Part shown: in pieces, positions 3,990 to 38,507 of the stretch
How positions within the stretch are numbered: position 1 is the first letter of the stretch
Layout: each line of letters begins with the position of its first letter
From: Lichtheimia corymbifera B2541
Taxonomy: Eukaryota > Mucoromycota > Mucoromycetes > Mucorales > Lichtheimiaceae
Direction: 5' to 3'
DNA length: 64,000 bases
NCBI GenBank assembly: GCA_000697475.1
Contig: JNEU01001129.1
Span: 1-64,000 of the forward strand
Program-made: the position numbers and the translations under genes
The notes under the pieces: generated by a model
Database searches by the model: none
Seen by the model: the letters and a program-made list of their open reading frames with translations, nothing else
What the model was told of the DNA's origin: nothing

Positions 3990-4880
3990 CGCATGTCCTT
4001 GAGATTGCCTCTCTCTAACCTGAAACTTTCACACAATATGCTATTGGGCATGCTGATCAACTTTGTCTTAATAAAGAACCCACACTTCATTCAAAGGTTT
4101 TGAATGGTTCTCTTTGTCATGCTGATCAACTCCATTCATTTAAAAATCGCATACTTCATTATGATGTTTCGATGAATCCGGCGGCCCAAATATAGGAGAA
4201 ATGATGGACGGACGGAACGCAAGGAGGGTGTATAGTGCACACCCCCGCGGTTGCCCATCTCCATCGTCAAACTTGGTCAGACTGTGGGCTTCGACATGCT
4301 GATCAACTCCATTTAAATAAAAGTCGCAGGCTTCATTGTGAGAAATAAAATGCGGGCGTCCGACGATGAACGGACGGTATTATATGGAGTGTGGACGGCC
4401 CATAACCTTAAGATTACCCATTTCGAACCTGAAAGTTTCACACAAGATGCTCTTGGACATGCTGATCAATTTCGTTCTCATAAAGACATCACGCTTCATT
4501 TAAAAATCTTGAATGGGAGGGTGTAATGTGGGATTGACTATGGAGGACGGAAATTCCGCACCCGTCCAAATGCATGAAATGTCAGTTACTCTGAATTACC
4601 TTGGGATTCCCCATCTTGAACTTGAAACTTGGTAAGAAGATTCTCTGAGTCATGCTGATCAACTTCATTCATTTAAAAATCATAGGCTTCATTATGAAAA
4701 CTTTAAATGGGAGCGTCCGACAAAGAACGGACATGAGCATAAGTACGGTGTACGGCCTACGTCCCCGATATTGCCCATCTCGATCTTGCAACTTTCACAC
4801 AAGGTGCTCTTGAACATGCTGATCAAGTTTGTTCTCATAAAGATACCACGCTTTATTTGAAAATTTGAGTGGGAGGGAAC
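3990..4880 (-). repeat. Repeat locus A: direct array of the GATCAGCATG unit
   Basis: Six divergent units in direct order, read on the minus strand. Each carries GATCAGCATG (seen as CATGCTGATCA on the plus strand near 4045, 4115, 4295, 4458, 4652 and 4814), then TTGTGTGAAAGTTTCA-like and GGGCAAT-like blocks. Spacing is irregular, about 70 to 195 bases. The same unit recurs at 30.9-31.5 kb and 34.5-35.4 kb on the opposite strand, so this is an interspersed family. No protein is encoded. Confidence 0.8.
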
Positions 4881-5087
4881 AAATGTACGAGAGACATAGC
4901 GTAGGTAGTGTTATCATGGGCTGGAGAAGGAGAAGTGTTCATATGCAGTTCATTGATCAACATCTGTAAGCGGGATTAGGAAGCTATCGGCTAGCAGTTT
5001 TATGGATTGGACATTAGATAGGTCCTAGCAAGTTATGAGCGAAGCGAGCAATGCCGGCCGCTAGTTCACTTTATTAAGCAAGTTTCA

Positions 5088-7161
5088 TTATTTTGGTACA
5101 AGTACAAGTGGATTACTCAGAGAGTAGGTATTCAATACATTATCTGCCCATAACAATGCCTCGAATGTAAAGGTAGTCGGATGGAAGACATCGGGAACTG
5201 CATCAGTGAATGCTGGAAATAGAGAACTATATAACTCCTGTAACTCGACAGCCGTTTGCGGATCAACCTCTTGTAGACTACTAGTACATTTAACACAGAT
5301 ATCAGCAAGATACACTCAAATCCTAACTTGTTCACATTACCTGGTCTTGTTGAAAAAGTCATGCCATTTGCTCTTATCCCCTTTGGACCGCTCTTGTATC
5401 AGTGCCAGCATAAATACAATATCTTCCTCTTCTTCAATATCTTCGAACAACTGGTCGACAGCATTCTTGAATGTTGGATTCCTTTGCAAAAGCTGCTTCA
5501 AGCTGATGGTGACGTTTTCCAGCATGACCATGGATGAGGATTCTTCACGTGGAGTAGAGAAATGCTCTGGATTAACGATCTTCAAGAAAGGTGCGTTGGG
5601 TGCAATTGTATCTTGTGCCATTGTCTTTAGCACCGATTGTTTCCGCTGTTCGACCATGGATAAGATTGATTTCAAAACGTCTTCTTGACCTACGATTACC
5701 CATATGACCATTATTAACCTGGACACCCGATACATTCGAATAATATCCACTTACCATCCCGGTACATCAATGCGTATTGCTGCCATGGTTTTGCTGCCTG
5801 ATCACGGCTTACAGGGAGCCTTTTCACATTCATCAGCTTGAACTGAAGCAGAGACTGGGTGGTGTTTAGCATGGCGAGCTCGTTACGATATCCGACAAAG
5901 TCAAGCATGCTGGCATCCGTGCAATTGACGTAATAGCTGATTTCAGTCTCATTCATCACAAGTACTCGCATAAGTTTCCAAAGAGAGTCGGGGGCTGATT
6001 GTCTGTGCACGTAATTCAATAATGGATCATCATTGCCGGATACGATATTCGCTTGTGAAAGGAGGTTGAGCTTGATTGGCCCGTTTGGATCTTGAGAAAA
6101 GTTGGGCTTGATAGCAAAGTGATCGTATTCATTGTACTATGTATCATTGTGTCAGATTTCATTCTTTTATCATCCTAATATAAAATATACTCACTGGGAA
6201 GCAAAATCCATAGCCCAAAAGCACTATTTGATCGGTTGTCAGATCCAGCATTGATAATTGAATCACCAAAACTTACATTCTTCGTTGGACTACAGGTTCA
6301 AAAGAAGGAAAACGTTAGCCAATATCCTTGCAATTTCTGTATACCACCAACCTTTGGACCATAATTGTTAAAGAGCTGTTGTCCTTGATTTGCGGGCTGG
6401 CCAGTAACAAAAGACAGGGTCCCAGTTTCCTCATCACCGGATCTCATCCAAGTAATTCTGGTGTTGGGTTTGTGATTCAATGCGTCCAAAAGGGGGAACA
6501 AGACCTCAGAGGGGATATCTTCCTTGGTTGGATCGATCAGCTTGTAAGGAAATGAGCGAGAAGAAAGCACACAATAAGCCCATAGATAATCGTCCCTATC
6601 ATTATTGTGAAATCAATTGACTTGCATATTTGTGAATGTAAACAAGACGGACATACCATGAAATGTTGTCAACGCCAGGCTCTTTTGATAACTTTTGATA
6701 CTCTTCATAGATTGAGGCCTTACGCTCCACCGTTGCAGTTGCTAGCGCCGTGTTCTCAATGAAGCGCATATCATCATCGTCAAAGAATAGTGTGGTCATG
6801 ATTTTGGGTGGTAACACATCCAGATAAGGCGCATAAAAGGATTGGCTTCCGAGATTTTTTTGTTGTGCCACAAAAGCTGACATGACAGCTCGACAGGAAT
6901 ACGCATGTAGAGAGGGAAAAGCGCGTCGTGCAACTGGTTCAGTAATCGCGAGTCGAAAAGGGAGCGTTGCCAATGTCTCATTCTCTTCCACGGGCTGGCT
7001 TGCATAGACACTACCAATGCCATCCTGATCTATAAACACGATCAACACCAAGATCCACACAACGACTACGATATCGAGTTACCTGTCTTGAAATCAAACT
7101 TGTCGAATGTAGCACCGTTGTCTCGAAGCCATTGGATGTAGCGTTCAAGTGGGATCGCCAT
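5088..7161 (-). CDS. SET-domain protein lysine methyltransferase (SETD6/LSMT-type)
   Basis: A multi-exon gene that starts MAIPLERYIQWLRDNG at 7161 and ends with a stop at 5088. Joined exons give the split SET architecture of the Rubisco-LSMT/SETD3/SETD6 group. This comprises an N-terminal strand block (GIGSVYASQPVEENE), the helical insert, SSRSFPYK, the cofactor-binding block LLDALNHKPN, the post-SET FNNYGPK and the motif NEELLLGYGFCFP. A substrate-binding-like helical region then follows. Such enzymes methylate lysines of ribosomal proteins, elongation factors or nuclear proteins using SAM. The last two exons (5750-5088) contain a second acidic helical region and a block TFEALLWADNVLNTYSL, which resembles the helix before the SSRSF motif of a SET domain but lacks the Arg and everything after it. 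Internal exon ends are approximate; the substrate is unknown. Confidence 0.8.
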
Positions 7162-7808
7162 CGTATATTATGGAGGTGAAAAAGAACGAGTACGCTTGTT
7201 GTTTGTGCGTGCGATATCGGAGTAGTCATGCAGCTTCCTTCCCATCCAAAAGAAACCAGTCGTCTTATGAATCCATGTCATGCTGTCTGAAAGGGAGGGG
7301 GGTGGGAGTTGCCTGTGTTTGGGAAAAAAGGGGATGTGTCTGGACACTTATGCAGCTATAGTTTACATCTTGTGGTACTACCCACCATAAGCATTCGCAT
7401 AAGACCACCATCATGCATGAAGAGGAGGAGGAGCACCCAGCCCAGTATCTGATGAGAAATGATATACATATTTAGATGTGTTGGGTAAAGCAAGCCTGGT
7501 AAAAGAGGAAGCATATGCGCACTGGGTGATCTTGCTGCTATTGCATGGCGCATTAAATAAAGCAGTACATAATACTAATAATACACAACAAAATATGCAA
7601 GTTCTGTAGCTTACTGCAGGTCGTTTGCTTATAAAAGTAGATGACGTGTAAGGAAGAAGAATCAAGGAGAGAAAAAGTGAGCCCAAAACGGAATTGATTC
7701 GGGCCATGGGCGTATTTTCATCTTGTTTCCATCACCCCTTTCTTGACTATGTCCTTTCTTCTTCTTCTTTGACCACACAACAATAACATACGTATACGAT
7801 ATTATTAC
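7162..7808. promoter_or_regulatory. Shared divergent upstream region (SET / RING-CH genes)
   Basis: About 650 bases between two genes transcribed away from each other. Contains no convincing frame. It holds G-rich, GGAGG-rich and CT-rich (7740-7770) stretches but no defined motif that I can assign. Confidence 0.35.
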
Positions 7809-8738
7809 ATGAGGGAGATCCATTATCTTACCTCGTCATCCATCCCAATGGATTTATCTCTGCCACCACCCTATCCTGTTTCCACTACTACACCTGCCAC
7901 CACTACGAACGCTCATCCAATGCCACGTCCATCTTCCAGCAGTGGATCTAGACGTTCGAGCCATAAACGACGTCCTTGTCAATTATGCCATTATGGCCAA
8001 AATGCAGAGAGCCAACAACCACAACCACAACACCATCCACCACGACGTTTACATTTTCCTGTGATCCCTTTTCTAATACACAAAAATCGACCACACCATG
8101 TACGAATATGTCCTTGTCCACAAAAGGTGCATCTAAATTGCCTTGCATTGGAAGGCCAACACAGGGATACCATCACCTGCAGTATATGTGACTACGCGTA
8201 TCATTCTCGATTACGAGTATACCTTAGCCGCGCTGTATGTTTTGCAATACACTTACTAAGTATGGCATCTGTGGTCGGCCTTGTCTTTGGATTAGCACAA
8301 CTTGGGTCAGCTCTTGACAAGCTTGGTCTGGGTAATGAGGCTGGTTCAAAGTTGGATGGGGACGAGCTATGGCAAGATCACGAGCTACAAGAGATTCTCG
8401 CATGGCTACAACTAGTTCACTTTGCAACAGGTGTTGCTGGTGAGGCTCTGTTGGGATTAGTCTATCTAGTGGGCGTATGTGGTGTCATTGGCCTTGATCG
8501 CACCCTTCACATGCTAGACGATATCATCCATATTAACCTTGAGCCCTTATTACGTTTGCCAATCCCCGAATGGATTCGAAGAGCTCTTCTTTGTACTTGC
8601 CTTACGTTCATAGGCCTGATCCTTGGTACATACCTCTTGTTTTATTCTTGGATTTGGGCATGCTTGCTTTGTCATTTTTGCTATCGAATCCTCAATGTAT
8701 CCACTTACACGCCATCACCACCATCATCATCACAATAA
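7809..8738 (+). CDS. RING-CH (MARCH-type) membrane E3 ubiquitin ligase
   Basis: Single-exon frame of 309 residues. A Ser/Thr/Pro-rich N-terminus precedes a C4HC3 RING-CH finger with Cys57, Cys60, Cys101, Cys103, His108, Cys111, Cys124 and Cys127 in the right spacing and order (CQLC, CPCP, HLNC, CSIC). Hydrophobic membrane segments follow at about 144-166, 205-228 and 260-290. This matches MARCH-type ligases, which sit in internal membranes and ubiquitinate membrane proteins. The first loop, between the second and third Cys, is long and Gln/His/Pro-rich, which is unusual. Translation could instead start at Met14 (7848), which has a better local context. Confidence 0.75.
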   Translation: MREIHYLTSSSIPMDLSLPPPYPVSTTTPATTTNAHPMPRPSSSSGSRRSSHKRRPCQLCHYGQNAESQQPQPQHHPPRRLHFPVIPFLIHKNRPHHVRICPCPQKVHLNCLALEGQHRDTITCSICDYAYHSRLRVYLSRAVCFAIHLLSMASVVGLVFGLAQLGSALDKLGLGNEAGSKLDGDELWQDHELQEILAWLQLVHFATGVAGEALLGLVYLVGVCGVIGLDRTLHMLDDIIHINLEPLLRLPIPEWIRRALLCTCLTFIGLILGTYLLFYSWIWACLLCHFCYRILNVSTYTPSPPSSSQ

Positions 8739-8925
8739 TACAATCCCATCATTCTTGTACATAATCGTATTTTCTCATGCTCCTGCTTGCTGATATTGTA
8801 ATGGGTGCGTGTGTTGCATAAATCACTCGAGACGTCAAATTTATCACTTGTCTCATCGCTTGCTATATGATTCATGCATCGGAGGTCGCGATAGATAAAA
8901 CACTCTTTCTTTTGCTTTTACTATC

Positions 8926-9519
8926 ATGTCAACTGAACGCTACCAAGATAATCATGACTCTAGCAGCATCGAATCTTGGTCACCTGAAATCAAGTCTCGA
9001 TGGCGTTTCTCGGCTGAACAACACCAGGCACTTGAACAAGCATACCAGGAACAGCGTAATCCTTCACAAGGCGAAATCAACTGGTTAGCTGAAGAGCTTC
9101 AAAGCCCAAGGAAAACAGTGGTGACATGGTTCCAAAACAGACGAGCTAAAGAGCGTCGTCGTCGCGGTCAGCGACAGCGTCAAGAATCTCCTCATCATCA
9201 TATGACACAAGCTTGGGTGTCATCATCAGCATCGTCATCATTTGAAGCAGCAGCAAGAAATACAACCGAGCTACTCTCAACGCATCATGAGAGTAATGCT
9301 AGTTCACAAGTATCATTTCCATCATCAACTGATAGCCAAAGGCACCAGCCAATGTACAACGATCCATTTTCGTATTATCTACTACCAGCATCCCACCATC
9401 AGAGTGGTCCGATGACTCAATATGCAGCGTGGCAATCCCCTACTTTCCAAGCCCTCTATGCACTCGATGACATTGATCTTTTCCTGGATCTCAGTGACAT
9501 TGCTTACACCTATCAGTGA
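8926..9519 (+). CDS. Homeodomain transcription factor
   Basis: Single-exon gene of 197 residues. A homeodomain occupies about residues 24-82, beginning SRWRFSAEQHQALEQAYQ. Its recognition helix carries the signature WFQNRRAKERRRR at 68-80. The rest is low complexity, rich in Ser, His and Gln, as expected for an activation or disordered region. The C-terminus ends in an acidic hydrophobic motif (LDDIDLFLDLSDIAY) that looks like a transactivation segment. It acts as a nuclear DNA-binding regulator; targets cannot be inferred. The helix-3 Asn and Arg required for DNA contact are present. The gene converges with the U2AF gene, leaving about 130 bases between stops. Confidence 0.9.
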   Translation: MSTERYQDNHDSSSIESWSPEIKSRWRFSAEQHQALEQAYQEQRNPSQGEINWLAEELQSPRKTVVTWFQNRRAKERRRRGQRQRQESPHHHMTQAWVSSSASSSFEAAARNTTELLSTHHESNASSQVSFPSSTDSQRHQPMYNDPFSYYLLPASHHQSGPMTQYAAWQSPTFQALYALDDIDLFLDLSDIAYTYQ

Positions 9520-9649
9520 TGATGCCCATTTATATCAATGATTAATACGCGTGGTTTCAATAACTCAACAATAAAAAAAGTATATTTGCAATGCACAAAA
9601 TGATCAAAGTATAACAGCAGACGATTATGATATATTGAAGTTCTTATTA

Positions 9650-10537
9650 TTAGTATTCATCATATCTATGTCTACGATGTCGGTCACTATCACGATAACG
9701 ATCATCATCTCGACGACGTGACGAGCTCCTTCTACTACGGTGATAATCCTCATCCTCTTCTCCACGCTCTTCTCTGCGGCGATGACGTTCTTCACGCTCT
9801 TTTTCTCGAATCGAAGCACGCTGAGCATCCATTAGTTCCCGCTTGAGTGACCTAGTTGGGTGTCTCAAATGCATAAAGTTGCAAAAGCCGCCACGATTAC
9901 ATTCGGCAACCTCGTGCTGTCTACAACATGCTTCCCTGAAATCTGTTACTGGGGACAACTCCGCATACAATGGTCGACCTAAGTATTGAAATATATCAGT
10001 ATCCTGTGTTTCATCTCCATCAACCACCCTTTTTACCTGCATAGAATCGGTTATTCAAGCTTTCTACTGCCTTCCCTGCTGCTTCTTCATATCGAAATTG
10101 GCAATACACGTTTCCCACCAAGTGGTCACCTATGTTGTCGCAGACGATCATCTCTTCTACCTCCCCAAAAGACGCTAATTCGGTAAAAACATCCTCGTAA
10201 AACATGTCAAAGTCTTCCTGCAGCTGTTCAGGAGGCATGGTATATAGCTGTTCGTGTGCTGGATTTTTGTACATATTGGCTATTAGAATCGTTTGTGAAA
10301 AGGTCGGCTTAACATGCTTTCTGGAGCAACGCTCTCCGTGTCGACAAGCGCCAATCTATGTTCAAGATTAGTTTCTCATCCTTTCAAATCGTTTCCATGC
10401 TGCTTACCTTGAAATAGAATGAGCAGTTGACTCTGTACACATGGTTTATAAAGTTAGTAACGTGTTATATGAAAATAAATAGAATAGACATACTTGTCCT
10501 TTTCAGTGCCATAAATGCTTGCGAGATATTCGGCCAT
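9650..10537 (-). CDS. U2AF1: U2AF small subunit (U2AF35), 3' splice-site recognition
   Basis: Four or more exons join to a protein of about 240 residues starting MAEYLASIYGTEKDK at 10537. In order: first CCCH zinc finger (Cys18, Cys27, Cys33, His37), an atypical RRM (DVFTELASFGEVEEM through NVYCQFRYEEAA), a second CCCH finger (CCRQHEVAECNRGGFCNFMH), and an Arg/Ser/Asp/His tail. This is the textbook U2AF35 layout and length. The protein binds the AG at the intron 3' end as a dimer with U2AF65. Ser34, the position known as a mutation hotspot in the human protein, is Ser here too (CSRKH). A microexon of about 20 bases near 10413-10432 encodes part of the first finger. Confidence 0.95.
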
Positions 10538-11323
10538 GCTGCTATTATGTTATTTTGGGAACTAAGGATCAAATGGTGGGGGAGCCGCAGCGAATGCTGA
10601 GACATTTATATAGCTGTCGGAGCAACATCCGTTGCCATGGAATTTCCATGGTGATCTGTGCTCTATATAAGACTGGACCAATTGACAACGAGTTTAACCT
10701 TTCTATATATGAATGTGGGGTATTGTGTGTCAGTCATCGAATGTGCTAGTAGCTGTCGATATTACAAAGGATGTCAAAAGAATGAGCATAATGTTGTTTC
10801 GGATAAAAGAAAGACCATTTTGCCTGTGCTATTTTGGGTAGTATAATAAATCAAGCCTGATTACCCCAGCAACGTGCATTGATTAACAGCAACATCCTCC
10901 GCACGAGATCTTGTTCCTGATAAACGAGTTGATAGCAGGTTGAAAGATGGCTCTCAATGTGGTCATGTTGTACAAGTAGGCTATGTATTCGCACTTGTTT
11001 CAAAAAAGTCTACCATTTGCATGAATTGGGAGTTAGGTTAACATGATGGTGACAGTGTTGAATGACAGGTCCATAACAGGTGGCGGATGATCTATTCTAC
11101 AACAACGTGTTATCGCATTGGATGCCGACCATGCACGGCACCGGTGCCGATCATGTCATCCTGCGACAGTGATCACCCCCTTTTATTTAAAACCATCCCC
11201 GAGGATAGTAAAGATTCTCCTCCTCGATTCATTTCTTTTTTCCTCTCTTCTTCTTTCTCACACACCCACGCTCACTCACGCTCTTTTTAACTTTTACACA
11301 TCATCATTCCTCCCCTCTCGGTT
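10538..11323. promoter_or_regulatory. Divergent upstream region of U2AF1 and the acyltransferase
   Basis: About 790 bases between divergent genes. An inverted-repeat motif, GTTGCCATGG followed by AATTTCCATGG, lies at 10631-10651 about 95 bases upstream of the U2AF1 start. An AT-rich TTTTATTTAAAA lies near 11180, 140 bases before the acyltransferase ATG, and a CT-rich leader spans 11215-11290. Confidence 0.4.
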
Positions 11324-13222
11324 ATGTCACATTCACCAGCTCTGCTAAAAACTGCAGTGCTTCAAGCTACAAAGACCAATGGTGATGAATCACAAGCCGA
11401 ATTCTCCGAGGTATCGTCCTTGTCGTCCGAGCCTATTATCAGCAACAACAACAGCAGTAATGGCAGCAATGACATGATCACCACCACCATTGACTCGTCC
11501 ACCACTACAACCACCGTTCTATCAGAGGGTCGTCCAGCAGTAGAAAAGACGCAATCAACGTCCACCACCATTTCTGAATCACACACAACGAGCGCCCACC
11601 AGGTGCATAAGAAACGACGACTGCTGTTCAAAGCGCGTATGTCAAAGTTTGATATCTCCAATCCTGAAACATCGAGCGATCCATTCCGTGGCTTCTTCAC
11701 TTTGTTTTGGCTTGTGATGGCATTTTATGTCATTCAAACGGCTATTCGATGTTATGAACAAGAAGGGGTCATTCTCAGTCTTGGCTTTTTTCGATTATTC
11801 TCCAAGGATGGTCTTGCTTTACTCGTATCCGACATGACGATGGTGGCCACTACCATGTGCAGCGTTGTATTCTCAAAAATGCTTATGCTGGGGATCATTC
11901 ATTATGAGACAACGGGGTGGGTTATACAACACGTGTGTCAGACCGTGTTCCTGTTTTTCAATATTTATTGGACGTTTTGGCGGTAAGTGGGTGGGGAGGC
12001 ATGTGGATATGGCTTAGTAGAGGGAATATGTATGTTCATCATGTGAAATAGTGATTGGCCATGGGTTCAGTCAGGCTTCTTCACACTGCATACCATTGTC
12101 ATGATGATGAAAATGCACTCCTACACGGCTTTCAATGGCGAGCTGTCGATCAAGTATCGGCGTCTTAAATCCCTCAAGGAATACATCCCCAAATGGATTG
12201 CTGAGCACAAGGATGATCATGCCGACAACAACAACAAAGAGCTCGAAGCGATGGAATCAGAGGTGGCATTTCTTCAAGATGAATTGGTCCAAGGCAATGC
12301 ACGCTATCCAGATAATATCACCTTTGCCAACTACTTTGATTATCTTTTGGTGCCAAGCTTAGTATATTCCATGGAGTATCCAAGAACTGAAAAGTAAGTA
12401 GGCAATGCAATGCATGATGACAACGTGAATGTATATATTAACCTTGGTTATTTAGAATCAGGCCTTGGTATGTGTTTGAGAAAACAGTTGCAACCCTGGG
12501 TTCTTTTCTTTTGCTCTACATCACCACCGAGCGTTATATCCTACCCAAGTTGTATGATCCCAACACATCCGATCTACGCGTCAGCATCGAGTTGTTGCTT
12601 CCATTCATGACAAATTACCTCTTGATATTTTACATCATCTTTGAATGCATTCTCAATGGATTTGCTGAGATCAGCAGGTATGTGATTATATGAGGTGCAC
12701 CTCTCCAAATGCTGACAGCTGTTTGTGGTATGTAGATTTGCCGATAGAAACTTTTATGACGATTGGTGGAATAGGTAATGAAGGATAAAGTCTGTGAGTG
12801 GATGGATTGAAACTTATGGAGGCTATGATGGATATAGTATCACCTACGATGAGTTTGCTCGCAAGTGGAACAAGCCCGTGCACCACTGGTTACTGCGTCA
12901 TGTGTATGCCCAATCCATCGAGTCTTATCGTTTATCCAAGGCCAATGCGACCTTTGTTACATTTTTATTCTCGTCATGCCTTCACGAGCTGGTTCTGGTG
13001 ATTGTTACGCGACGTATCCGCATGTATTTATTTGTGCTGCAAATGTTGCAGCTTCCCTTGATCATGATCGGAAGACATCCGCTCATCCGCAAGTATTCCA
13101 TGGTCGGCAATATTGTGTTCTGGTTGAGCATGTTTGTGGGTCTTCCATTGTTGGCGATCCTTTATTGTAGAGAGGCCTTTTGGTCTGACGCTATCTTTGG
13201 CACACATATTCATTCCCAATAA
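11324..13222 (+). CDS. Sterol O-acyltransferase (ARE2/SOAT-type MBOAT enzyme)
   Basis: Five exons: 11324-11982, about 12051-12394, about 12457-12677, a short exon near 12737-12775, and 12826-13222. They join in frame, for example SRFADRNFYDDWWNSITYDEFARKWNKPVH across two introns. The enzyme esterifies sterols with fatty acyl-CoA in the ER for storage in lipid droplets. Visible hallmarks are the FYDDWWN motif, the MKMHSYTAFN block, the FARKWNKPVHHWLLRHVY block typical of fungal ARE enzymes, and the conserved His in FSSCLHELV expected to be catalytic. Multiple membrane helices are present, and the Ser/Thr-rich first 110 residues are likely cytosolic. DGAT1 is the nearest alternative, but the WNKPVH and HSYT context favours a sterol acyltransferase. 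Confidence 0.88.
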
Positions 13223-13656: not shown

Positions 13657-13694
<38 letters not shown>

Positions 13695-13729
13695 AAAAGA
13701 TGCCAGGAGTAGTGAAGGATATAAAGTAG
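13223..13729. other. Convergent 3' region with microsatellite
   Basis: About 500 bases between convergent stops, AT-rich with short GA and CA runs and the GAAA array at its right end. No gene seen. Confidence 0.4.
13661..13696. repeat. (GAAA)n microsatellite
   Basis: About nine uninterrupted GAAA units just downstream of the samB/Mub1-like stop codon. Confidence 0.9.
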
Positions 13730-20357: not shown

Positions 20358-20376
20358 ACACACACACACACACACA
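20358..20376. repeat. (CA)n microsatellite
   Basis: A short run of alternating AC, about nine units. Confidence 0.8.
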
Positions 20377-26589: not shown

Positions 26590-26669
26590 TTTTAGATCAA
26601 AATACATTTTCAATCACTTTTTTTATTGTATATCATGTTGGAAGACTTTATTGAGTAAACAATGCTAGT

Positions 26670-27588
26670 TTAAGCTGTTTTATATGCGACAACACGAAGA
26701 CGCACATACATTACAAACCATTTCCCATCTTCTCGTTGATAGGAGGGTCTCAAATGCTCCATAATTTCAGATATCACTTCCTCACGATCCTTATCAGTTG
26801 GGAGGACTTGAAGAAAGCAGAAACCAAATGTACGCAGCCATCCACCCACATCAGTGTCAAGCTCTGTCATACGTGGCACCAGATCGATGGATTTCACTTG
26901 GAAGCCATTGTTTTCAAGATCTGCCTTGTATGTGTCGGGAGATGGGAAATACCATGGTGACAAAGATTGGCCATTGAAACCACGACGATTGAGAGCAGTG
27001 ATCAATGCTGTGTGTATCTCTAAAACATACATCATTCATTAAAAAGGCATGGGGCATGGTGGTGATGATGAAGGAAGCATACCTCCACAATTCATAAATC
27101 CTCCAAATTCAGCTACAAAACGTCCACCTGGTTTAAGGACATGATGGATGCCCCGGATGACCTTGATAGGATCGCGTTTGAGCCAATGAAGTGCTATATA
27201 GAATCCAATGTTAGTTTCCCCACAATTTTTATCCTGTGACAAATTATTTATACTTGCTTGCATTAGAAAACACAGCATCAAAAGCGGCAAGATCAGGAGC
27301 GGCATCAAACCATTCTGCCACATCATGACCATCCACAACATGGTAATCGATATTGGTATCCGGAGGTGCGATTGCCTTTGCCTTTTCTATCATGTTGCTG
27401 CTGGCATCAATTCCAACAACAGACTTGCATTGCTCGGCCAGCTTGAGCGTAAGTACTCCGTCGCCACAACCAAAGTCGAGAACCTTTTCGTCAGATTGAG
27501 CATCAAGCATACCAAGGATGATGGACCCCAGTCTGGGCACAAACGATGCATGGGTGTTATAGTTGCTAGATGACCAAGAGGATGACAT
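26670..27588 (-). CDS. Class I SAM-dependent methyltransferase (trans-aconitate-type)
   Basis: Three exons (27588 to about 27260, about 27197 to 27080, about 27019 to 26670). The first encodes the SAM-binding motif VLDFGCGDGVLTLKL, the acidic-end motif VVGIDASSNMIEKAK, a DGHD block and FDAVFSNA. The second continues ALHWLKRDPIKVIRGIHHVLKPGGRFVAEFGG. The third carries the variable lid and substrate part (SPWYFPSPDTYKADLENNGF). The motif order and the SNAALHWL block fit the trans-aconitate methyltransferase-like or Methyltransf_11/25 group of small-molecule methyltransferases; the substrate is not determinable. Length is about 255 residues, normal for the group. The start at 27588 gives MSSSWSSSNYNTHASFVPRLG. 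Confidence 0.8.
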
Positions 27589-28083
27589 TTTTCTTTTCGT
27601 GTGTATGCCAAGATTGTCCCTGTTGTGGTGGTGGCACAACACCACTCTGTCTTTATAAAAGAACGCCTTGCGCGGAGATTGACACGGTGATCCCGCATGA
27701 TTGGCTAGTCAGTTCATGTATTCATATTGACCCTACTCTTGGCAACCAACGTTAGCTTGCATAGTGTTGTATTGAGTATGAGTCGATCATTCTTGATTGG
27801 ATGCCCTGGTTCGCACGAATGTCATTATACTTAGCCACGTCCTTGACCGATGTCTGAGGCAGGGATAAACGATAGCCTTCCTCCTTTGGTGGCCATTGGC
27901 TGCTATTACGTGGTTTTTTATGCAGATGGGGTTGTGCCGTGTACTAGTAAATACAATGTGGCCTGTTCCCAGCATAGCCTGTAACTTTCACATGCCGCTC
28001 TGACATTGATATATGGGCTTTGTCCCATTCATCCTGCCACCTTTTGTAGTCTTCTTTTCTTCCTCCACCAATTTTCTCCAATT
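27589..28083. promoter_or_regulatory. Divergent upstream region (methyltransferase / SCP2-like)
   Basis: About 500 bases between divergent starts. A CT-rich leader (28040-28080) precedes the SCP2-like ATG. No specific motif assigned. Confidence 0.35.
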
Positions 28084-28881
28084 ATGGTTGCTATCAACGA
28101 TGACGACATCAAGCAGCTTAAGCAACTAGCTAGCGACTTGCTCATGCCAGAACTAGAACGTCAGCTGCAAGAAGACCCTTCGCTTATCCCTAATATGAAG
28201 GCCCTCTTTGTTCTCACAATAGTGAAAAAGAGAAAGCCCATGGCTACTTGGTAAGCTAAAAGAGTTGGATGCGTAATACTTGCTCGGGATTTGAATTAAC
28301 ATGATATCCAGGTACTGCTTGCTTCAAGGTTAGAGCGCCAAATTGGATCAAGTGCATTATTATTCAAGGGCAGCAGTTAACCCTATTATTTTAGGGAAAG
28401 GAGTGATGCCAGTCATTACAGACAATGAAGACGTAATCAAGAATACAATGAAACGCAAGGTCAAGGTCGTCAAGGTTGAAGTCGAGGATAAGAATATGGT
28501 CAATCTTTTAACAGGCGGGTAATGTATCTCTCTCTCTCTCACATATGCATGCATGCGTACAGCCGACTAACATATAAGAGTAGTATGACAGGTATGATAT
28601 GCGCAATAAATACAATAGGAAGCTTTCAACTCACACACCATCAAAAGGCGTAAAGGCTTATATGACTGGTCGCATCAAGGTTCGTGGTGATCTTTTGCTC
28701 GCACAGCAGCTTGAACAGGTCTTTGAGAAAGCCAATGGGCGTAAGGTACGTCATTGTCTAAGCTTAGAAGAATGACACACTCATCTTACAATAACTGCAA
28801 AAGCGTGCCTTGACATTCCTTAGGGAAAATGAGCAATTGCGTGCTGCTCTAGCTGCTCGCAATATCAAAGCCAAGTTGTAG
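28084..28881 (+). CDS. SCP2-like lipid-binding domain protein (probable)
   Basis: Four or five exons join in frame to about 185 residues: MVAINDDDIKQLKQLASDLL (28084), then TWYCLLQGKGVMPVITDNED across two introns, then DKNMVNLLTGGYDMRNKYN, AYMTGRIKVRGDLLLAQQLEQVF and a C-terminal basic helix ending at 28881. The block from the strand WYCLLQGKG to GRIKVRGDLLLAQQLE resembles the sterol carrier protein 2 fold (strand, then kGkikikGdm-like turn, then helix). SCP2 domains bind lipids or acyl-CoA. It lacks an obvious peroxisomal SKL signal, ending AKL instead, which resembles a weak PTS1. The Lys-rich middle and the ENEQLRAALAAR tail are not typical of SCP2. Family assignment is moderate. Confidence 0.6.
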
Positions 28882-29195
28882 TGTGTCTTCAAATACGAAC
28901 ATAATGCAATCAATAATACTGTTGGGGTGCCGCATGATGTGTATGTTTGCACTGTGGGAATAAGATGATCCTTTCTCACCATGTGCAACGAAGCATGGCA
29001 ACCTTTTTACCCCACGACATTCATGTTCTACACACACACTCTCTCTCCCATATATATCCTTAATGTCTTTTGTGTATGATGCAATGATGATGCTGCTACG
29101 CGTTGATTTTGATTTTAATAGTGCATGGATAAGATTTTGTTGTATACATGATGAAGAGCGAAAGGAGGGGGAGGGAAATACACCACAAGATGAAA

Positions 29196-29766
29196 CTAGA
29201 ATTCGACGTCGGTTCGACCTGGTTGATCCGTTGGCATGTCCGTATCCATGACAACATGTGCATCTTGTTGTTCAAAGACAGACATTGGTTGTTGTGATGC
29301 TTTGGCGTCCTCGAATGTTCGTTGTCGAATAACATCCATATCAAACTTGTTTTTCAATGTGTTGATTTCCGAGATCAATTCTGACGTAGCGTCCTTCAAT
29401 GCTTGGCCTGGAGCAGTGCCTGGTACGGTTTGCACCTTGACGTGAAAGTTGTGTTCGAGTGGATGTGGCACCTTGTAGCCGGCAAATAGCACACGGGGAT
29501 CTTTCAAGAGCTGTCTATAATGCTGCATTATTACATTTGATATATCGACAATAAGGAAGCTGATTTCGCTTACGATCGTAACATATTTCCTAGCGTGTGG
29601 TCCTCTCGTTCAATCTTGAAGGTGGCTGCATTGGGGATTCTAGTGTCGATCTCCATCTCCACTCTTTTCTAGAGTCAGTCATTGAGGCCTATTCAATCGA
29701 ATGTTGCACCTACTTTCTTCTTCCTTCCGGAATGACAAATAGTTCGAAACGTTCTGGTGCGTTCAT
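29196..29766 (-). CDS. RPB11: RNA polymerase II subunit RPB11
   Basis: Three exons. The first encodes MNAPERFELFVIPEG (29766); the next joins through an AG at the start of VEMEIDTRIPNAATFKIERED and HTLGNMLRS; the last is LLKDPRVLFAGYKVPHPLEH to the stop at 29196. The sequence HTLGN followed by AGYKVPHPLEHNFHVKVQT is the signature of RPB11/AC19 subunits; the N-terminal ERFELFV motif specifies RPB11. The protein dimerises with RPB3 in the polymerase II core. The total of about 150 residues exceeds the usual 115-120 because of an acidic Gln/Asp tail after the last helix. It is head to head with LSM4 across about 210 bases. Confidence 0.93.
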
Positions 29767-29979
29767 GGTTGTGTGTGTGTGGTTGTTGTTGTGCGGTTAT
29801 GGGTTGTAAAATGAGGGAGCCAAAGGAAAGAAAGCTGACAGCAACGCAGTGCGTGGTAGGGTCAACTTGAACTCCGGACTTTTTGGCAACCATTGGTTTT
29901 CTTCCTCAACAAGCTCTAACGTAAGATCCACAGCACGCGACGATCCGATCAGGCTCCTTATTTCAATTATAGACACTCC
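29767..29979. promoter_or_regulatory. Compact bidirectional promoter, RPB11 / LSM4
   Basis: About 213 bases separate the two divergent start codons. Two conserved essential genes must share regulatory sequence here unless LSM4 carries an upstream non-coding exon. CTTTCTTTCC-like and TTTGG tracts are present; no canonical TATA box is seen. Confidence 0.55.
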
Positions 29980-30342
29980 ATGTTACCTTTATCTCTTTTA
30001 CACACGGCTGCTGGTCACCCTCTTTTGGTTGAACTCAAGAATGGCGAGACTTTTAACGGCCATTTGGTCAACTGCGACAATTGGATGAATTTGACGCTGC
30101 GTGAAGTGATTCAAACCTCTCCCGATGGTGACAAGTTTTGGCGTTTGCCCGAGTGCTATATCCGTGGTAATACCATCAAGTATCTGAATGTGCCTGAAGA
30201 GATTGTGGACATGGTCAAGGAAGAGGAAGGCCGTCAACGTAACATGCGTGGTAACCGTGGCCGTGGTGGAGGTAGAGATGGTGGTCGTGGTCGTGGCAGA
30301 GGTAATCAAAACCGTGGTGGAGGTGCTCGTGGTGGACGATAA
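29980..30342 (+). CDS. LSM4: U6 snRNA-associated Sm-like protein LSM4
   Basis: Single-exon frame of 120 residues starting [22 protein letters not shown]. The Sm1 motif ([24 protein letters not shown]) and the Sm2 motif ([15 protein letters not shown]) are present, with the family's PLSLL start. An Arg/Gly-rich RGG tail follows (from about residue 85). LSM4 is part of the Lsm1-7 (decay) and Lsm2-8 (U6 snRNP) rings. Length is normal. The absence of introns contrasts with most neighbours. Confidence 0.95.
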
Positions 30343-30889
30343 AGATATCAAGGCAAGAGGAAACGGCAGTACATGTACATCCAACACTTGATCCGACATT
30401 CAACATTTACTATTTCCACCCTTGTTACGATATTCATTTCCACACATTCATGCCATCCGTTTTTTTCTTACTCCATACAACAAAGCTGTCGTTATTCTCT
30501 TGATCTCGCAAAATGTGTCTTGTTTGTTAATGTTGGGGATGGGGATATGCTATGTGCATTGCAGGGCTAGCATTTAAATCAAATCTAGAAAGCCTATCCA
30601 TAGTGCATGTAATCATATAAAGCTCGCTTGGCTCGTAAACTTTGATTTCTCGTAATGTTCCTACGACTTTTATGCAATCGCATCACATCCTCGCCAATCA
30701 TTAGCCCCTTCCTCACCATTGTCCAGTCTACTACATGTGCGAGATTCTCCTGATTCAGCCCATCATTTTCATCATTCAAATGTCTGGATCCGAGAGATTT
30801 GACTGACCTATGCTGTCATTACAAACCGTACACCGTACTTATGTTCCATCCTTTCATAGCTTATCCCCTCTCCCACTCCAAATCCTCAC
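30343..30889. other. LSM4 3' region and edge of the repeat island
   Basis: No supported gene. A 61-codon minus-strand frame at 30594-30779 has no recognisable domain. Confidence 0.35.
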
Positions 30890-31560
30890 AGTGGAGCATG
30901 AGATTTTATTTTGAAAGGCGTGATCAGCATGCCCTAACAAATCTTCTGACAATAAGTTTGAAGTTCGGGATGGGCAATCTCAGGGACGTGCACTATACAT
31001 TTCCCGTTCGTTCATCGTCGGATGTCCGCATTCAAAGTTCCCCTAATAAAACGTATGGTTTTATTTGAATGAAGTTGATCAACAGGTCCCAGCGAACCTG
31101 CTGACCAAGTTTCACGATGGAGATGGGCAATCGCGGGGGAGTGCACTATACACCCTACTTGCGTTCCATCCGTCCTAAAATTGGACCGCCGGATTCGTAA
31201 AACATCATAATGAAACATGCGATTTTTAAATGAATGGGGTTGATCAGAATGACTCAGCGAACATGCTTACCAAGTTTCAAGTTCCAGGAGGGCAATCCCA
31301 AGGTAATTCATACTAAATGGCATTTCAATGAATCCCGGCGGTTCCGGAATTTCCGTCGGTCATAGTAAACCCCACATTATGCTCTCCCTTTCAAAAACTT
31401 TGAATGAAGTGTGGGTTCTTTATTAAGACAAAGTTGATCAGCATGCCCAAGAGCATCTTGTGTGAAAGTTACAGGTTTGAGAAGGGTAATCTCAAGGTCA
31501 TGCATCAATTACAGTGTGCGTGGATTTGCATGACAGCGCCTGATCTATTTAATTTCCACC
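30890..31560 (+). repeat. Repeat locus B: direct array of the GATCAGCATG unit
   Basis: Four units in direct orientation. Cores are at about 30921 (GATCAGCATG), 31077 (GATCAACAGG), 31241 (GATCAGAATG) and 31434 (GATCAGCATG), spaced about 156, 164 and 193 bases. Each core is followed by a CAAGTTTCA or GAAAGTTACA-like block, then a GGGCAATC-like block. The last unit closely matches the third and last unit of locus C, including the GAAGTGTGGGTTCTTTATTA approach. The spacing pattern is conserved between B and C, so they are copies of one larger array. Confidence 0.8.
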
Positions 31561-32010
31561 TTTTCCACATCCCAGCCTCTTCCTCTTCCTCCTCCCATTC
31601 TCAACAGTTGCCCCATTCAACTACAACTACAACCTGGGAACGATTGTCCTGCTTCCAATCCACCATGTCAATGCTACGAATATCTTGACCCGATTGTCTT
31701 TGACTGAATGACGACTTCATGGCGTGTGCACCACACTACAACGCCTGCATTCCTTGACACTGTATTTTCTCTTGTACACTCCTCTGCCACAACCAATCGT
31801 AACAGCATTCATTCCAGCAGTTACTATTAGCAAGGCCTTCATTGCATTGTCTCCATAGCGTTCACAACCTTGTCACTCTACTACAATACACGCTCTTGCA
31901 CACTTCTCTGCCACCACCAAACGTAGCAGCTGTTGCTATTAGCAAGGTCTTTACTCCATTGTCCCAATTTACTTGGCAGCAGCTTGCTTTGATACATATG
32001 GATTCCAATG
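31540..32010 (+). repeat. Downstream tail of element copy B
   Basis: Starts with a TTTAATTTCC and CT-rich stretch, then ACGATTGTCCTGCTTC and ATGTCAATGCTACGAATA (7-codon frame MSMLRIS) before AGCAAGG-type blocks. The same blocks occur in the same order at 35390-35800, with about 75-80% identity by eye. Similarity fades after about 32010. Confidence 0.7.
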
Positions 32011-33027
32011 GATGGTATGCCATATCAACTATCAGATCCAGCACATTACAAGCAATTCTCACCTGGTTGACCTGTGATGGAAGAAGGGATTGACCAACAA
32101 CCGGACGGAAAAGGCAGCATACACCATCATGGCTCTTTTCAACCAACGTATTGGATTTGATGGATGGATGGGATGGAGTTGACGAAGCAGCTTATATCTT
32201 TCACAAAGGACTTTTACAACCGTGGATGATATGGAATACTCGAATCAAACCATGCAGCAACTATTCCCAATCATGGATGAAGGATGCTTATGACGGCAGC
32301 AACGAAAATACAATGACTCAATTACCCTGTTCCCCTCATGTGATTCACTCGTGTCTTATACTATTTGCAACATTGTTCATTTATCATATTTATTCGATAA
32401 ACATCCACACCACTATGTATGTCCTATTCTTCGACTTAATCATTGAATGAAAATTGGGTTCAAGATGATATTTAGGAGGGTATCGTGATATCTACTCATA
32501 TGTGTGGGATGTGGATCACTTGTTTGGTTGCAGGATTGAACGGGGAAATAGTAGCTCGAAGGTCGGAAAGCGAGACGCGATCATTTACATCATCATCATA
32601 TGTATCGAGATGCCTTTGTTCTTTTGTGACAATATACTGTCGTTTATGCTTTCTAGTTCACATGATGATACACGAAGGCAGTCGCTATTCTCAAAAATGC
32701 TTATATTCAAAAGACAATAAGTTCAGAGTGAGGGTGCCCAGCATCATATGTAGTAGTGCATGTTATATAAGCTTGGTGGTTCATTGTAAGCTTATTCCAT
32801 TATGTTCAAGAAAAAGTGAGCTGTGAGAGAATGTGGCACGAATGCATGGACATGTCATTATTACCTACGAAAAGTTCCAGCTAACACTATCCTATGCAAC
32901 CGTAAGTAAGAACGAACACCATTCCATCGGGCTATCATAGGCAGACCTTACTACAGGCGTATCATGGATGGAGTTACTTCATGCATCTCTCCACCAATAG
33001 GATCGGCCCTTCAAGTCTGGCTCAGTA

Positions 33028-33570
33028 ACACAAACACGCCCCTCTGCATCTTCGGCTCTATCAAGGTCCAGCTACTTGACAATGAACAAAGACCACTTTC
33101 CATATAGCATCATAGTTACAGCATATGTAAAACACAAAGATGCCCATAACTAAAAATTCTACAATGAGACGCGGGGTCTTCAATCGAACAAAGTTGCGCG
33201 GCGGGATCAAGTGCACCTTGTGTAGAAGTTTCATGATCGTAGTGGCCGATCTCATATTCACCCAATGTCACCACCAGTCAAAGTGGATCTGGTCGATCTC
33301 TTGAATTTTTTTCGACGAGGCTAGTGGTGACATTGGGTGAATGTGAGAATGGCCACTACGATCATGAAACTTCTACACAAGGTGCACTTGACCCCGCCGC
33401 GCAACTTTGTTCGATTGAAGACCCCACGTTTCATTGCAGAATTTTGAGTTATGGACATCTTTATGTTTTACATATGCTGTGACCATAATACTATATGACA
33501 AGTGGTCTTTGTTCATTGTCAAGATGGTAGACCCTGATAGAGCGGAAGATGCGCAGGGGCGTGCATGTGT
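33028..33570. repeat. Long imperfect palindrome P1
   Basis: Left arm about 33028-33276 and right arm about 33321-33570 are reverse complements with roughly 90% identity by eye, around a spacer of about 45 bases that includes GAATTTTTTTCGAC. The arms carry a version of the repeat-family unit (GGGTCTTCAATCGAACAAAG, then CTTGTGTAGAAGTTTCATGA). If transcribed through, the RNA would form a hairpin of about 250 base pairs. Confidence 0.85.
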
Positions 33571-33576
33571 AACACA

Positions 33577-33867
33577 GCTCATTTGCATGATACTTCACAA
33601 TGAACAAATGCCACTTGTCATATAACATCATGGTTTCAGCATATGTAAAAGCTTAAAAGTGTATGTATCTAGGATTGGCATGTTTGATCGTGAAACATGA
33701 TTGACAAGGTGCGCTCCACCACGACGAGCAATATTGTTCTATGAAAGAGCCCATGTTTCATTGTAAAGTTTAGAGATAAATGCACTTCCTCGTTTTATAT
33801 ATGCTGAAAAGCATGATGCTATATGACAAGTGATGTTTGTTCATTGTGAAGTATCATGCAAATGAGC
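33577..33867. repeat. Imperfect palindrome P2
   Basis: Arms begin GCTCATTTGCATGATACTTC at 33577 and end with the reverse complement at 33867, with a more decayed inner part. It lies directly between P1 and P3. Confidence 0.75.
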
Positions 33868-33884
33868 TGTGTTGCACAAACGCG

Positions 33885-34400
33885 CCCCTCTGCATCTTCC
33901 GCTCTATCAGAATTGAGCTACTTGACAATGAACAAACACCACTTATCATATAGTATTATGGTCACAGCATATGTAAAACATAAAGATGTCCATAACTCAA
34001 AATTCTACAATGAAACGTGGGGTCTTCAATCGAACAAAGTTGCGCGGCGGGATCAAGCGCACCTTGTGCAGAAGTTTCACGATCGTCGTGGCCATTCTCA
34101 GATTCACCCAATGTCACCACCAGCCAAAGTAGAATCGGGTCGACCTCTTGAATTTTTTTTTTCGACTTTGGCTGGTGGTGACATTGCGAAATCTAGGATC
34201 GCCGAGGTTGATTGTGAAACTTGCACACAAGGTGCGCCTCACCCCGACGAGCAACTTTATTCGATTGAGGACCCCACATTTCATTGTAAAGTTTTGAGAT
34301 ACAGGCACCTTTGTGTTTTACATATGTTGTAAGCGTGATGTTATATGGAGAGTGGTGTTTGTTCATTGGGAAGTATCATGCAAATGAGCTGTGTTGCACA
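33885..34400. repeat. Long imperfect palindrome P3, related to P1
   Basis: Left arm about 33916-34133 and right arm about 34165-34370, centred on GAATTTTTTTTTCGAC. The left arm is nearly the same sequence as the P1 left arm, and the right arm is more diverged. A further half copy (about 34440-34530) leads into locus C. Confidence 0.75.
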
Positions 34401-34539
34401 AAGAAGTCCGTCTGCATCTTCGGCTCTATCGGGGTCTACCTACTTGACAATGAACAGACACCACTTGTCATATAGCATCACGCTTACAGCATATGTAAAA
34501 ACATAAAGGTGCCTGTTTATCCAAATTTCCATAATGATG

Positions 34540-35400
34540 TGTAGAGGCTTTATGAGCACGATCTTGATCAGCATGTCGAAGCCCACGGCCTGACCAAGTT
34601 TCGAGGTCGCCGTGGGCAATATCGGCGCGCACGGCGCGTACACCCTATTTATGTTACCATCCTTTCGTCGTCTCTCCCACATTCAAGATTTTCATAATGA
34701 ACTCTGGGGTCTTTATGGGAACGAAATTGCTCGGCGTGATCGAAAGGGTGTTGTGTGAAAGTTTCAGGTTCGAGGTGGGCAATCTCGGGGAACAGGAGCG
34801 CCGACCCTACTTTTCTCTTCGTCTCTCCTACATTTGGGCTGGCCCGCATTCAAAATGTTCATAATGAACCATCCGGTTTTTAAATGAATGAAGTTGATCA
34901 GCATGTGCGAGAGTACCTTCTGACCAAGTTTCAAGTGCGAAATGGGGAATCCCAAGAAACTACATACTAACTGACTTTTTCATAAATCCGGCGCTTTCCC
35001 AATTTCCGCCCATCATAGTAAACCCCACATTATGCTCTCCCTTTCGAAATTTTCAAATGAAGTGTGGGTTCTTTATTAAGACAAAGTTGATCAGCATGTG
35101 CGAGAGTACCTTCTGACCAAGTTTCAAGTGCGAAATGGGGAATCCCAAGAAACTACATACTAACTGACTTTTTCATAAATCCGGCGCTTTCCCAATTTCC
35201 GCCCATCATAGTAAACCCCACATTATGCTCTCCCTTTCGAAATTTTCAAATGAAGTGTGGGTTCTTTATTAAGACAAAGTTGATCAGCATGCCCAAGAGC
35301 ATCTTGTGTGAAAGTTTGAGGGTTGAGACAGGCAATCCCAATATCATGCATTGATATCAGTGCATATGGATATGTCTGTCTGCCTGACAGATTTAATTTC
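34540..35400 (+). repeat. Repeat locus C: direct array of the GATCAGCATG unit
   Basis: Five units with cores at about 34567, 34735 (variant), 34894, 35087 and 35280. Two successive units are an exact duplication (see separate entry). The variant second unit (GGAACGAAATTGCTCGGCG) is intermediate between the array unit and the palindrome-arm unit, linking the two structures. Confidence 0.8.
34891..35276 (+). repeat. Two 193-base near-identical tandem copies
   Basis: Bases 34891-35083 and 35084-35276 agree closely. From GATCAGCATGTGCGAGAG through CCCACATTATGCTCTCCC they appear identical, and both start AAGTTGATCAGCATG. Minor differences are limited to the approach to the first core. This is a recent duplication within locus C. 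Confidence 0.85.
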
Positions 35401-35830
35401 CACCTCTTCCACTCCCACTTTATTTCCCTCTTCTTCCCATTCTCAACTGTTGATGCATTCAAGTACGACTACCATCTACGAACGATTGTCCTGCTTCACT
35501 CCATCATGTCAATGCTACGAATAGCTTGATCTGAAAGCCTTTGACTGAATGGCAAGTTCCATGGCGTGTGGACTCCACTACAGCAACACCGGCATTCCTT
35601 GACACTGCACGTTCCCTTGTACACTCTTCTGCCACAACCAATCGTAACAGCCTCATTCTAGCAGTTTCTATTAGCAAGGTCTTTAATCCACTGTATTCAA
35701 ACAGCATTCACAGCCTTGTCACTCTACTACAACACACGCTCTTGCACAGTCCTCTGCCGCGACCAAACGTAGCAGCCGTTGCTATTATCAATGTCTCAAG
35801 TTACTTGCAGCAACCTCCCATGAAGCATTT
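35390..35830 (+). repeat. Downstream tail of element copy C
   Basis: Matches the tail of copy B block by block: GATTTAATTTCCACC, CT-rich leader, ACGATTGTCCTGCTTC, the 7-codon frame MSMLRIA, GCATTCCTTGACACTG, CTCTTGCACA and AAACGTAGCAGC. After about 35830 the two copies diverge. Confidence 0.7.

Positions 35831-38505: not shown

Positions 38506-38507
<2 letters not shown>

What the first reader, a model, noticed from the sequence alone, without database searches (positions are those of the whole stretch)
3990..35830. An interspersed family of 160-193 base GATCAGCATG units at three loci
The same unit occurs in arrays at 3990-4880 (minus orientation), 30890-31560 and 34540-35400 (plus orientation). 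Each unit has the core GATCAGCATG, a CTTGTGTGAAAGTTTCA-like block and a GGGCAATC-like block in fixed order. Arrays B and C also share the spacing sequence (about 156-170, then 193). This looks like a whole composite element copied as one piece rather than a simple satellite. It encodes no transposase in the window and I cannot match it to a named family.
Basis: seen in the sequence. Interest (0 to 1): 0.75.

Follow-up and report, generated by a model that had tools for sequence, protein, structure and literature searches.

The report
Fungal foldback transposon with internal arrays
The repeated units are building blocks inside a large, fold-back family of jumping genes, spread through the genome of a mould related to Lichtheimia and probably moved by a Mutator-type transposase; the general kind is known, but I found no description of this architecture.

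Summary
GATCAGCATG occurs exactly 2246 times in the 35.0 Mb genome (reversed-pattern control 15), that of a mucoralean fungus near Lichtheimia. The 145-194 bp units (U) are subrepeats of a modular element: U array, a 1.56 kb stretch (T1-T4) and alternately inverted modules (I) with the same core. Copies form nested palindromes several kb long; arrays B and C lie in one such locus. Some copies elsewhere end in an inverted repeat, GGGAATTACTACGCGCGCACC (58 hits with up to 2 mismatches, 29 of them the MULE's own variant; control 0). Eight inverted pairs delimit candidate elements; 5 of 7 tested have 8-9 bp flanking repeats (6/8 to 9/9), against at most 5 matches in mismatched pairings. The joined flanks of one insertion match an intact I module in the window. 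A homologous terminus bounds a 4.6 kb element with MULE transposase sequence. Best reading: a non-autonomous foldback-type Mutator-superfamily (MULE) family, roughly 6% of the genome. The window copies show no terminus and are probably truncated or decayed; how the palindromes grew is unknown.

The parts
3910..3990 (-). remnant of the stretch that follows the array (T1 side), inverted; end of homology with locus B
   Evidence: arms 3910-4107 / 31387-31584, 88% complementary
3990..4879 (-). array A: six U units (one partial), spacing 101-193 bp
   Evidence: profile hits 4003-4090, 4104-4159, 4251-4336, 4412-4499, 4605-4692, 4770-4855
30728..30807 (+). short T1-like match upstream of array B, weak
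   Evidence: profile hit only
30870..31504 (+). array B: four U units
31527..33087 (+). T1-T2-T3-T4 stretch following array B
   Evidence: T1 31527-31974, T2 31965-32187, T3 32208-32776, T4 32784-33087
33019..34626 (.). I array: alternately inverted modules, palindrome centres near 33299, 33722 and 34147, with U-like cores
   Evidence: I1, I2, I6; cores 33164+, 33348-, 33673-, 34010+, 34197-, 34534+
34534..35353 (+). array C: five U units; two neighbouring 193 bp units identical
35373..35912 (+). T1 and start of T2 following array C
35913..36498 (+). alternative tail (S), about 65-76% alike in copies L021, L024 and L027; L021 and L027 align to the same end point near 36498
34074..34117 (+). 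uninterrupted counterpart of the C136 insertion site (93% identical to its joined flanks over 44 of 51 bases)

Best explanation
The arrays are internal subrepeats of a non-autonomous, foldback-type DNA transposon family of the Mutator (MULE) superfamily. The basic element is: terminal inverted repeat, a subterminal stretch (X), an array of U units, the T1-T4 stretch, I module(s), terminal inverted repeat. Elements were moved by the transposase of a related MULE with a homologous terminus, which acts on the terminal repeats and leaves 8-9 bp target-site duplications. Shown: genome-wide dispersal, recurrent module order, shared sharp terminus in some copies, flanking repeats, an empty site for a short relative, and a MULE bounded by a homologous terminus. 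Inferred: that this MULE did the moving; that the window copies, which lack a detectable terminus, are truncated or decayed descendants; that U arrays grow by slippage or unequal exchange and palindromes by template switching during gap repair.
For: 2246 exact cores against a control of 15; the capped list of 100 places alone covers 26 of contigs C1-C46 (my count). Recurrent module order T-U-I-U-T or X-U-T-I-T-U over the window and 19 fetched stretches and L046. Mid-contig palindromes with arms 77.5-91% alike (L021, L022, L028, L031). Three copies with unrelated flanks share the inner part of one terminus. 34 inner-repeat hits (17/17, up to 3 mismatches, control 0); 58 outer-repeat hits (30/28, control 0), of which 29 are the MULE variant and 29 not (my count). 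Of 5 TIR pairs read in full (L047-L050, L053), L049 and L050 enclose U arrays. C260:55324-59622 holds a T match and a U block. Flanking repeats: C136 9/9, C397 7/8, C260 7/8, C222 6/8, C200 6/8; 42 mismatched pairings average 2.3/8 (2.4/9) and never exceed 5. The C136 insertion lies in an I module. L053 (C157:918-5522) has 223 bp inverted ends 90% alike and the same terminal sequence, one base changed at its left end and two at its right, with MULE domain PF10551 in two pieces, E 3.4e-4 (below cut-off) and 1.3e-9. A profile of the foldback termini built without it finds both its ends, E 1.5e-5 and 1.4e-10.
Against: No terminus is detectable in the window, and 29 non-MULE outer-terminus hits are few beside 2246 cores, so most arrays have no visible ends. 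L019 lacks the outermost bases of the terminus. C90 shows no flanking repeat (2/8) and C157 only 5/8. The MULE element L053 shares none of the U, I, T or X modules, only the terminal repeat. The two copies that give the empty-site evidence (C136, C222) are short; no module was found in C222 (L047), and C136's interior was not read. Module order is not constant: L023, L025, L033 and L037 hold small T1 pieces within the I array, L034 and L035 join other modules to T3, and L036 has only an array. The S tail has a common end with no resemblance to the terminal repeat. The three youngest palindromes (L019, L020, L046) run into contig ends, so their second arms could be partly an assembly effect.
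Confidence: 0.78

Rival explanations
1. An interspersed satellite: arrays and palindromes spread and grow by recombination and segmental duplication, and the terminal repeats belong to MULE-type elements that merely inserted next to or into them.
For: Most arrays show no terminus. Array starts are cut at varied points near or within units. Two 193 bp units in the window are identical, a local duplication. Short elements with this terminus do insert into I modules.
Against: In L049 and L050 the terminal repeats face inward and enclose X, U, T (and in L050 I) in module order; L019, L020 and L046 share the same X end and inner terminus with unrelated flanks; C397 and C260 have 7/8 flanking repeats.
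Confidence: 0.15
2. Derivatives of an LTR retrotransposon, with the arrays as promoter or LTR repeats.
For: A U array lies directly before a gag-bearing retroelement in L036.
Against: The array breaks off inside a unit where an LTR-like TGTGGTAA... sequence starts (read by eye), so that retroelement most likely inserted into an older array. Copies are palindromic with inverted, not direct, ends. This was seen at one locus only; the other gag loci were not fetched.
Confidence: 0.02
3. A host structural or regulatory repeat (centromere, telomere, nucleosome-phasing or small-RNA locus) kept for function.
For: Spacing peaks at 156, 163, 178 and 193 bp resemble nucleosome repeat lengths (recalled); long hairpins could yield double-stranded RNA (one search gives matches to miRNA families, all below their gathering scores).
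Against: Dispersed over many contigs; T copies mostly 71-92% alike; a shared transposon terminus in some copies.
Confidence: 0.05

Closest known systems
Tm1, Mutator/Foldback family of Meloidogyne (PMC3169594; passages read, among them part of the abstract)
   Same: Foldback-like composite repeats, non-coding copies plus a transposase-encoding Mutator-type member, 8-10 (mostly 9) bp target duplications
   Different: Tm1 subrepeats are 13-15 bp and make up the TIR itself; here the subrepeats lie 145-194 bp apart, inside the terminal repeat, and an alternating palindromic I array is added. Different host; sequences were not compared.
MULE-Mucorales group (PMC6446971; passages and part of Table 1 read)
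   Same: Mutator superfamily transposase in Mucoromycota; TIR-bounded
   Different: The table gives 10 bp TSD and 40 bp TIR; L053 has about 223 bp inverted ends, and the flanking repeats found are 8-9 bp. No foldback derivatives are mentioned in the passages read. Whether L053 falls in that group was not tested.
MULEs with tandem long TIRs in plants (PMC3310237; passages read, among them part of the abstract)
   Same: Mostly non-autonomous MULEs whose terminal regions were multiplied in tandem and then amplified
   Different: Duplication there is of the TIR; here of an internal unit, in up to nine tandem copies (L021) and in nested inverted order
Drosophila FB and Arabidopsis FARE foldback elements (recalled; seen here only as references in PMC3169594)
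   Same: Long inverted repeats that fold back, subrepeats, 9 bp duplications (recalled)
   Different: Not compared here; subrepeat size and module order differ from what I recall

Membership tests
Mutator (MULE) superfamily | Transposase with MULE domain | tested here: not met
   Not in the array-bearing elements: no transposase family in 10 ORFs from the modules and 10 longer ORFs from the same stretches (20 of the ORFs listed, the rest not scanned). Found in the TIR-sharing partner L053: PF10551 E 3.4e-4 (below cut-off) and 1.3e-9 in two pieces. Expected for a non-autonomous family.
Mutator (MULE) superfamily | Long terminal inverted repeats related to those of a MULE | tested here: met
   Profile of foldback termini built without L053 finds both its ends, E 1.5e-5 and 1.4e-10; first 21 bp differ by one base from its left end. 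Not detected in the window copies.
Mutator (MULE) superfamily | 8-11 bp target-site duplication | tested here: inconclusive
   Of 7 TIR pairs: 9/9, 7/8, 7/8, 6/8, 6/8, 5/8, 2/8 (better of 8 and 9 bases); 42 mismatched pairings reach at most 5. Array- or T-bearing elements among them: C397 7/8, C260 7/8, C90 2/8.
Foldback elements | Very long inverted repeats that fold back on themselves | tested here: met
   Mid-contig palindromes L031 3.85 kb 91%, L021 3.2 kb 83%, L022 3.1 kb 79%, L028 4.4 kb 77.5%. L049 and L050 show one U array each, not mirror-image arms.
Foldback elements | Terminal repeats built of tandem subrepeats | tested here: inconclusive
   U arrays lie inside the arms but about 500 bp in from the terminus, behind the X stretch, in L019, L020 and L046; the terminal repeat itself is not made of U units.
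hAT superfamily | hAT transposase in or beside the elements | tested here: not met
   9 PF05699 matches in the genome; the 4 loci fetched (L042-L045) hold no U, I or T module; the other 5 were not examined.

The most novel reading that the evidence does not exclude
A transposon-satellite hybrid with its own amplification by palindromes: the alternately inverted I array and the U arrays multiply in place by a hairpin or template-switch process, so that one element becomes a multi-kb nested palindrome which then transposes as a unit. It may also feed long double-stranded RNA into the host's silencing system.
Probability: 0.15. Interest if true: 0.7.

Novelty: new variant of a known kind. Interest (0 to 1): 0.42.

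Why it matters
A single repeat family of perhaps 6% of the genome would matter for mucoralean genomics. The L. corymbifera genome paper reports 4.7% repeats in all, found with Repbase and Censor, which could miss an undescribed family (it is not shown that the genome here is that species). The family also seems to help break the assembly: 21 of the first 100 listed cores, on 12 contigs, lie within 3 kb of a contig start, against at most 3.7% expected (my count; cores of one array are not independent). It offers a case in which nested palindromes, tandem arrays and a young MULE with homologous termini can be compared to ask how foldback elements arise.

Tried and rejected
Simple satellite or local duplication: rejected by the genome-wide count. 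Structural RNA: Rfam gave 7 matches (E up to 1) in 30500-36500, all below gathering scores, 5 of them miRNA families, as a long hairpin may. Coding function of T: ORFs of 130-180 aa recur but match no domain above cut-off; five ORF pairs gave 24 synonymous changes over 376 sites and 60 non-synonymous over 1481, a weak excess on ORFs chosen for being open, so not taken as coding. A T ORF matches two 'predicted proteins' of L. corymbifera, probably spurious gene models. Arm-to-arm homogenisation: L031 arms are closer to each other (91%) than to other copies (80-87%), but L022 (79%) and L028 (77.5%) are not, so not general. Subtelomeric location of the MULE ends: not supported, because all seven contig ends checked lie inside L053-like sequence, 93-100% alike. 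MULE and hAT genes with module-bearing flanks: none among the 8 loci fetched. Terminus of the S tail: no match to the terminal repeat, no convincing inverted partner at the other end. A first search for target duplications, anchored at the inner part of the terminus, found only GCGCGC in L047 and nothing in L048-L050; the later result rests on the outer terminus and was tried at lengths 8-11, with the excess at 8 and 9 only. The 6% figure is a ratio estimate from 19 array-rich stretches (94,723 module bases per 98 cores, times 2246) and may be too high; 6,075 of 64,000 window bases (9.5%) were covered.
Full report
Observation. The three arrays exist as described. A repeat search groups the same 74-94 base unit and finds inverted matches between A and both B and C. 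With up to one mismatch the core occurs 21 times in the window against 8.8 expected from shuffles; the CTTGTGTGAAAGTTTCA block, with up to three, occurs 10 times against 0.3. In the whole genome (34,979,012 bases, 432 contigs; the window is C395:1-64000) the exact core occurs 2246 times, 1179 forward and 1067 reverse, against 15 for the reversed pattern. Two exact cores 170-200 bases apart, start to start, occur 425 times, control 0.

Organism. An ORF beside one array (L035) is fungal elongation factor 3. An ORF of the T module matches only two proteins at E up to 0.01, both named from Lichtheimia corymbifera. A MULE piece has an L. corymbifera MULE as its best named hit, 61% over 71% of its length; six unnamed hits score higher. 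The MTHFR ORF of the window is 81% identical to Absidia cylindrospora and 69-70% to Rhizopus microsporus, while its 98-100% matches are unnamed (best 120 of 598 listed). I take it as a mucoralean fungus near Lichtheimia; the species is not established.

Anatomy. I fetched 19 stretches of up to 10 kb around listed hits (chosen for paired or inverted arrays, so not a random sample) and mapped profile models of the modules on them and on the window. U is a unit of about 90 bases; neighbouring units in one orientation lie 145-194 bases apart (140 of 141 spacings, one of 248) with peaks at 156, 163, 178 and 193. After the last unit of many arrays comes a 1.56 kb stretch, T1 to T4. I modules hold a U core each and change orientation: +- pairs 176-188 bases apart, -+ pairs 325-341, one 405. 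Two patterns recur: T-U-I-U-T (for example L022, L027, L028, L031) and X-U-T-I-T-U (L019, L020, and L046), where a second X would lie beyond the contig end. There are exceptions: short T1 pieces within the I array (L023, L025, L033, L037), direct joins to T3 (L034, L035), an array alone (L036). In the window, locus B-C reads U x4, T1-T4, I array, U x5, T1, then another tail S whose end near 36498 is shared with other copies. Locus A is an inverted array with a short remnant of T1.

Palindromes. Self-comparison shows mid-contig palindromes of 3.1-4.4 kb with arms 77.5-91% alike (L021, L022, L028, L031) and three at contig ends with arms 97-99% alike (L019, L020, L046). In the latter the contig stops inside the second arm, so a share of assembly effect cannot be excluded. 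In L019 the arms differ by 65 substitutions and 7 single-base gaps.

Termini. L019, L020 and L046 have unrelated flanks but share an abrupt outer end. A pattern from it, with up to three mismatches, hits 34 places, control 0. Reading outward from paired hits gave the full terminus GGGAATTACTACGCGCGCACC, with an optional further copy of a roughly 25 base block; L019 and the left end of L048 lack the outermost bases. With up to two mismatches it occurs 58 times, control 0; by my count 29 of these carry the MULE variant described below and 29 do not. Inverted pairs on one contig delimit eight candidate elements: C90, C397, C200, C222, C286, C136, C260 and C157. Five were read in full. L050 (C90) reads terminus-X-U x3-T1-T4-I-terminus. 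L049 (C397) reads terminus-T3-T2-T1-U x3-X-terminus in reverse orientation. L047 (C222) and L048 (C286) are short and hold no module. L053 (C157) is the MULE. C260 holds a T match and a U block; the interiors of C200 and C136 were not read.

Target sites. Flanks were compared for 7 of the 8 pairs (C286 was left out because its left end is degenerate). Matches at the better of 8 or 9 bases: C136 9/9, C397 7/8, C260 7/8, C222 6/8, C200 6/8, C157 5/8, C90 2/8. Own pairs average 5.1 of 8 and 4.1 of 9; the 42 pairings of flanks from different elements average 2.3 and 2.4 and never exceed 5; at 10 and 11 bases there is no clear excess. The joined flanks of C136 match an uninterrupted I module in many of the stretches searched, including window 34074-34117 at 93%. 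C222 likewise lies at the loop of an I palindrome: its joined flanks match across the junction, for example L025 4805-4870 at 80%. These small relatives therefore inserted after the I modules existed.

Partner. PF10551 (MULE) has 9 matches in the genome. Two lie on contigs with the variant terminus: C157 (L053), whose ends are 223 base inverted repeats 90% alike, and C388 (L039), 97% identical to L053 over 2.9 kb, with a terminus hit at 3820-3840. L053 holds MULE pieces on one strand, one of them below the family's cut-off; the copy is interrupted or contains introns, which I did not resolve. A CxC...CxH stretch in a third piece looks like a SWIM finger by eye, but no family matched it. The variant GGGAATTACTACGCCCGCACC accounts for 28 hits, plus one with one further change; 11 of these 29 lie within the first 551 bases of a contig. 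Seven such contig ends examined all continue in L053-like sequence at 93-100% identity, so this MULE is young and present in many copies. A profile built only from the foldback termini recognises both L053 ends.

Mechanism. The likely history is that a MULE relative acquired the X-U-T-I interior, lost coding capacity and was moved by the MULE transposase in trans. U arrays then varied in number, probably by slippage or unequal exchange (two neighbouring 193 base units in the window are identical, while units elsewhere in the window are 60-80% alike), and mirror-image doubling produced the palindromes, probably by template switching. The last two steps are inference. Apart from the copies on C148 and C2, the scored T matches are 71-92% identical to the query (40 of 554 candidates scored), so much of the family is old.

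Literature. The L. corymbifera genome paper reports 4.7% repeats found with Repbase and Censor and names no such family in the passages read; its Table S2 was not seen. I searched for Lichtheimia with transposable elements (17 papers, 15 listed), foldback with transposon, palindrome, tandem and fungi (10), any two of Lichtheimia, MULE and inverted repeat (122, 12 listed, none of those with Lichtheimia), Mutator-like with foldback (5), and Mucorales with Mutator (2). The listings showed no description of this family. Subscription papers and Repbase or Dfam themselves were not searchable. The nearest described cases are Tm1, MULE-Mucorales and MULEs with tandem TIRs.

Verdict. A real, unusual variant of a known kind. 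Strongest points: the terminus, its pairing around array-bearing elements, the flanking repeats and the MULE with a homologous terminus. Weakest: no terminus in the window copies, few termini beside the number of arrays, and an unexplained S tail.

Noticed in passing
L036 (C10:27000-33306), about 4690: A gag-bearing LTR-type retroelement appears to begin (TGTGGTAA...) inside a unit of a U array, so it probably inserted into an older array; three gag copies at 100% identity (rounded) exist in the genome.
   Followed up: partly
C14, C19, C23, C60, C90, C95, C97, C120, C215, C255, C368 starts; C137 end: The MULE terminus variant lies about 350-550 bases from these contig ends; the seven ends examined (C14, C19, C60, C90, C97, C120, C137) are 93-100% identical to the interior of L053: a young, assembly-breaking, possibly still active transposon.
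   Followed up: partly
window 1963-2222: 48 base tandem repeat, 5.4 copies, inside a 248-codon open frame on the minus strand.
   Followed up: no
window 8926-9519, 37694-38638, 55952-57370, 58828-59787: Host genes by domain: homeodomain, sucrase/ferredoxin-like, C2H2 zinc finger, MTHFR C-terminal domain.
   Followed up: no
window 35913-36498 and L021, L024, L027: An alternative tail of array copies with a common end but no resemblance to the MULE-type terminus.
   Followed up: partly
proteins P0001, P0002: Two L. corymbifera 'predicted proteins' resemble a translation of the T module and are probably spurious gene models; they suggest that the family also exists in that species.
   Followed up: partly
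L053:425-946 minus strand: A second open frame of 174 codons in the MULE element; no Pfam match at E 0.1; looks by eye like an OTU-type protease (recalled resemblance).
   Followed up: no
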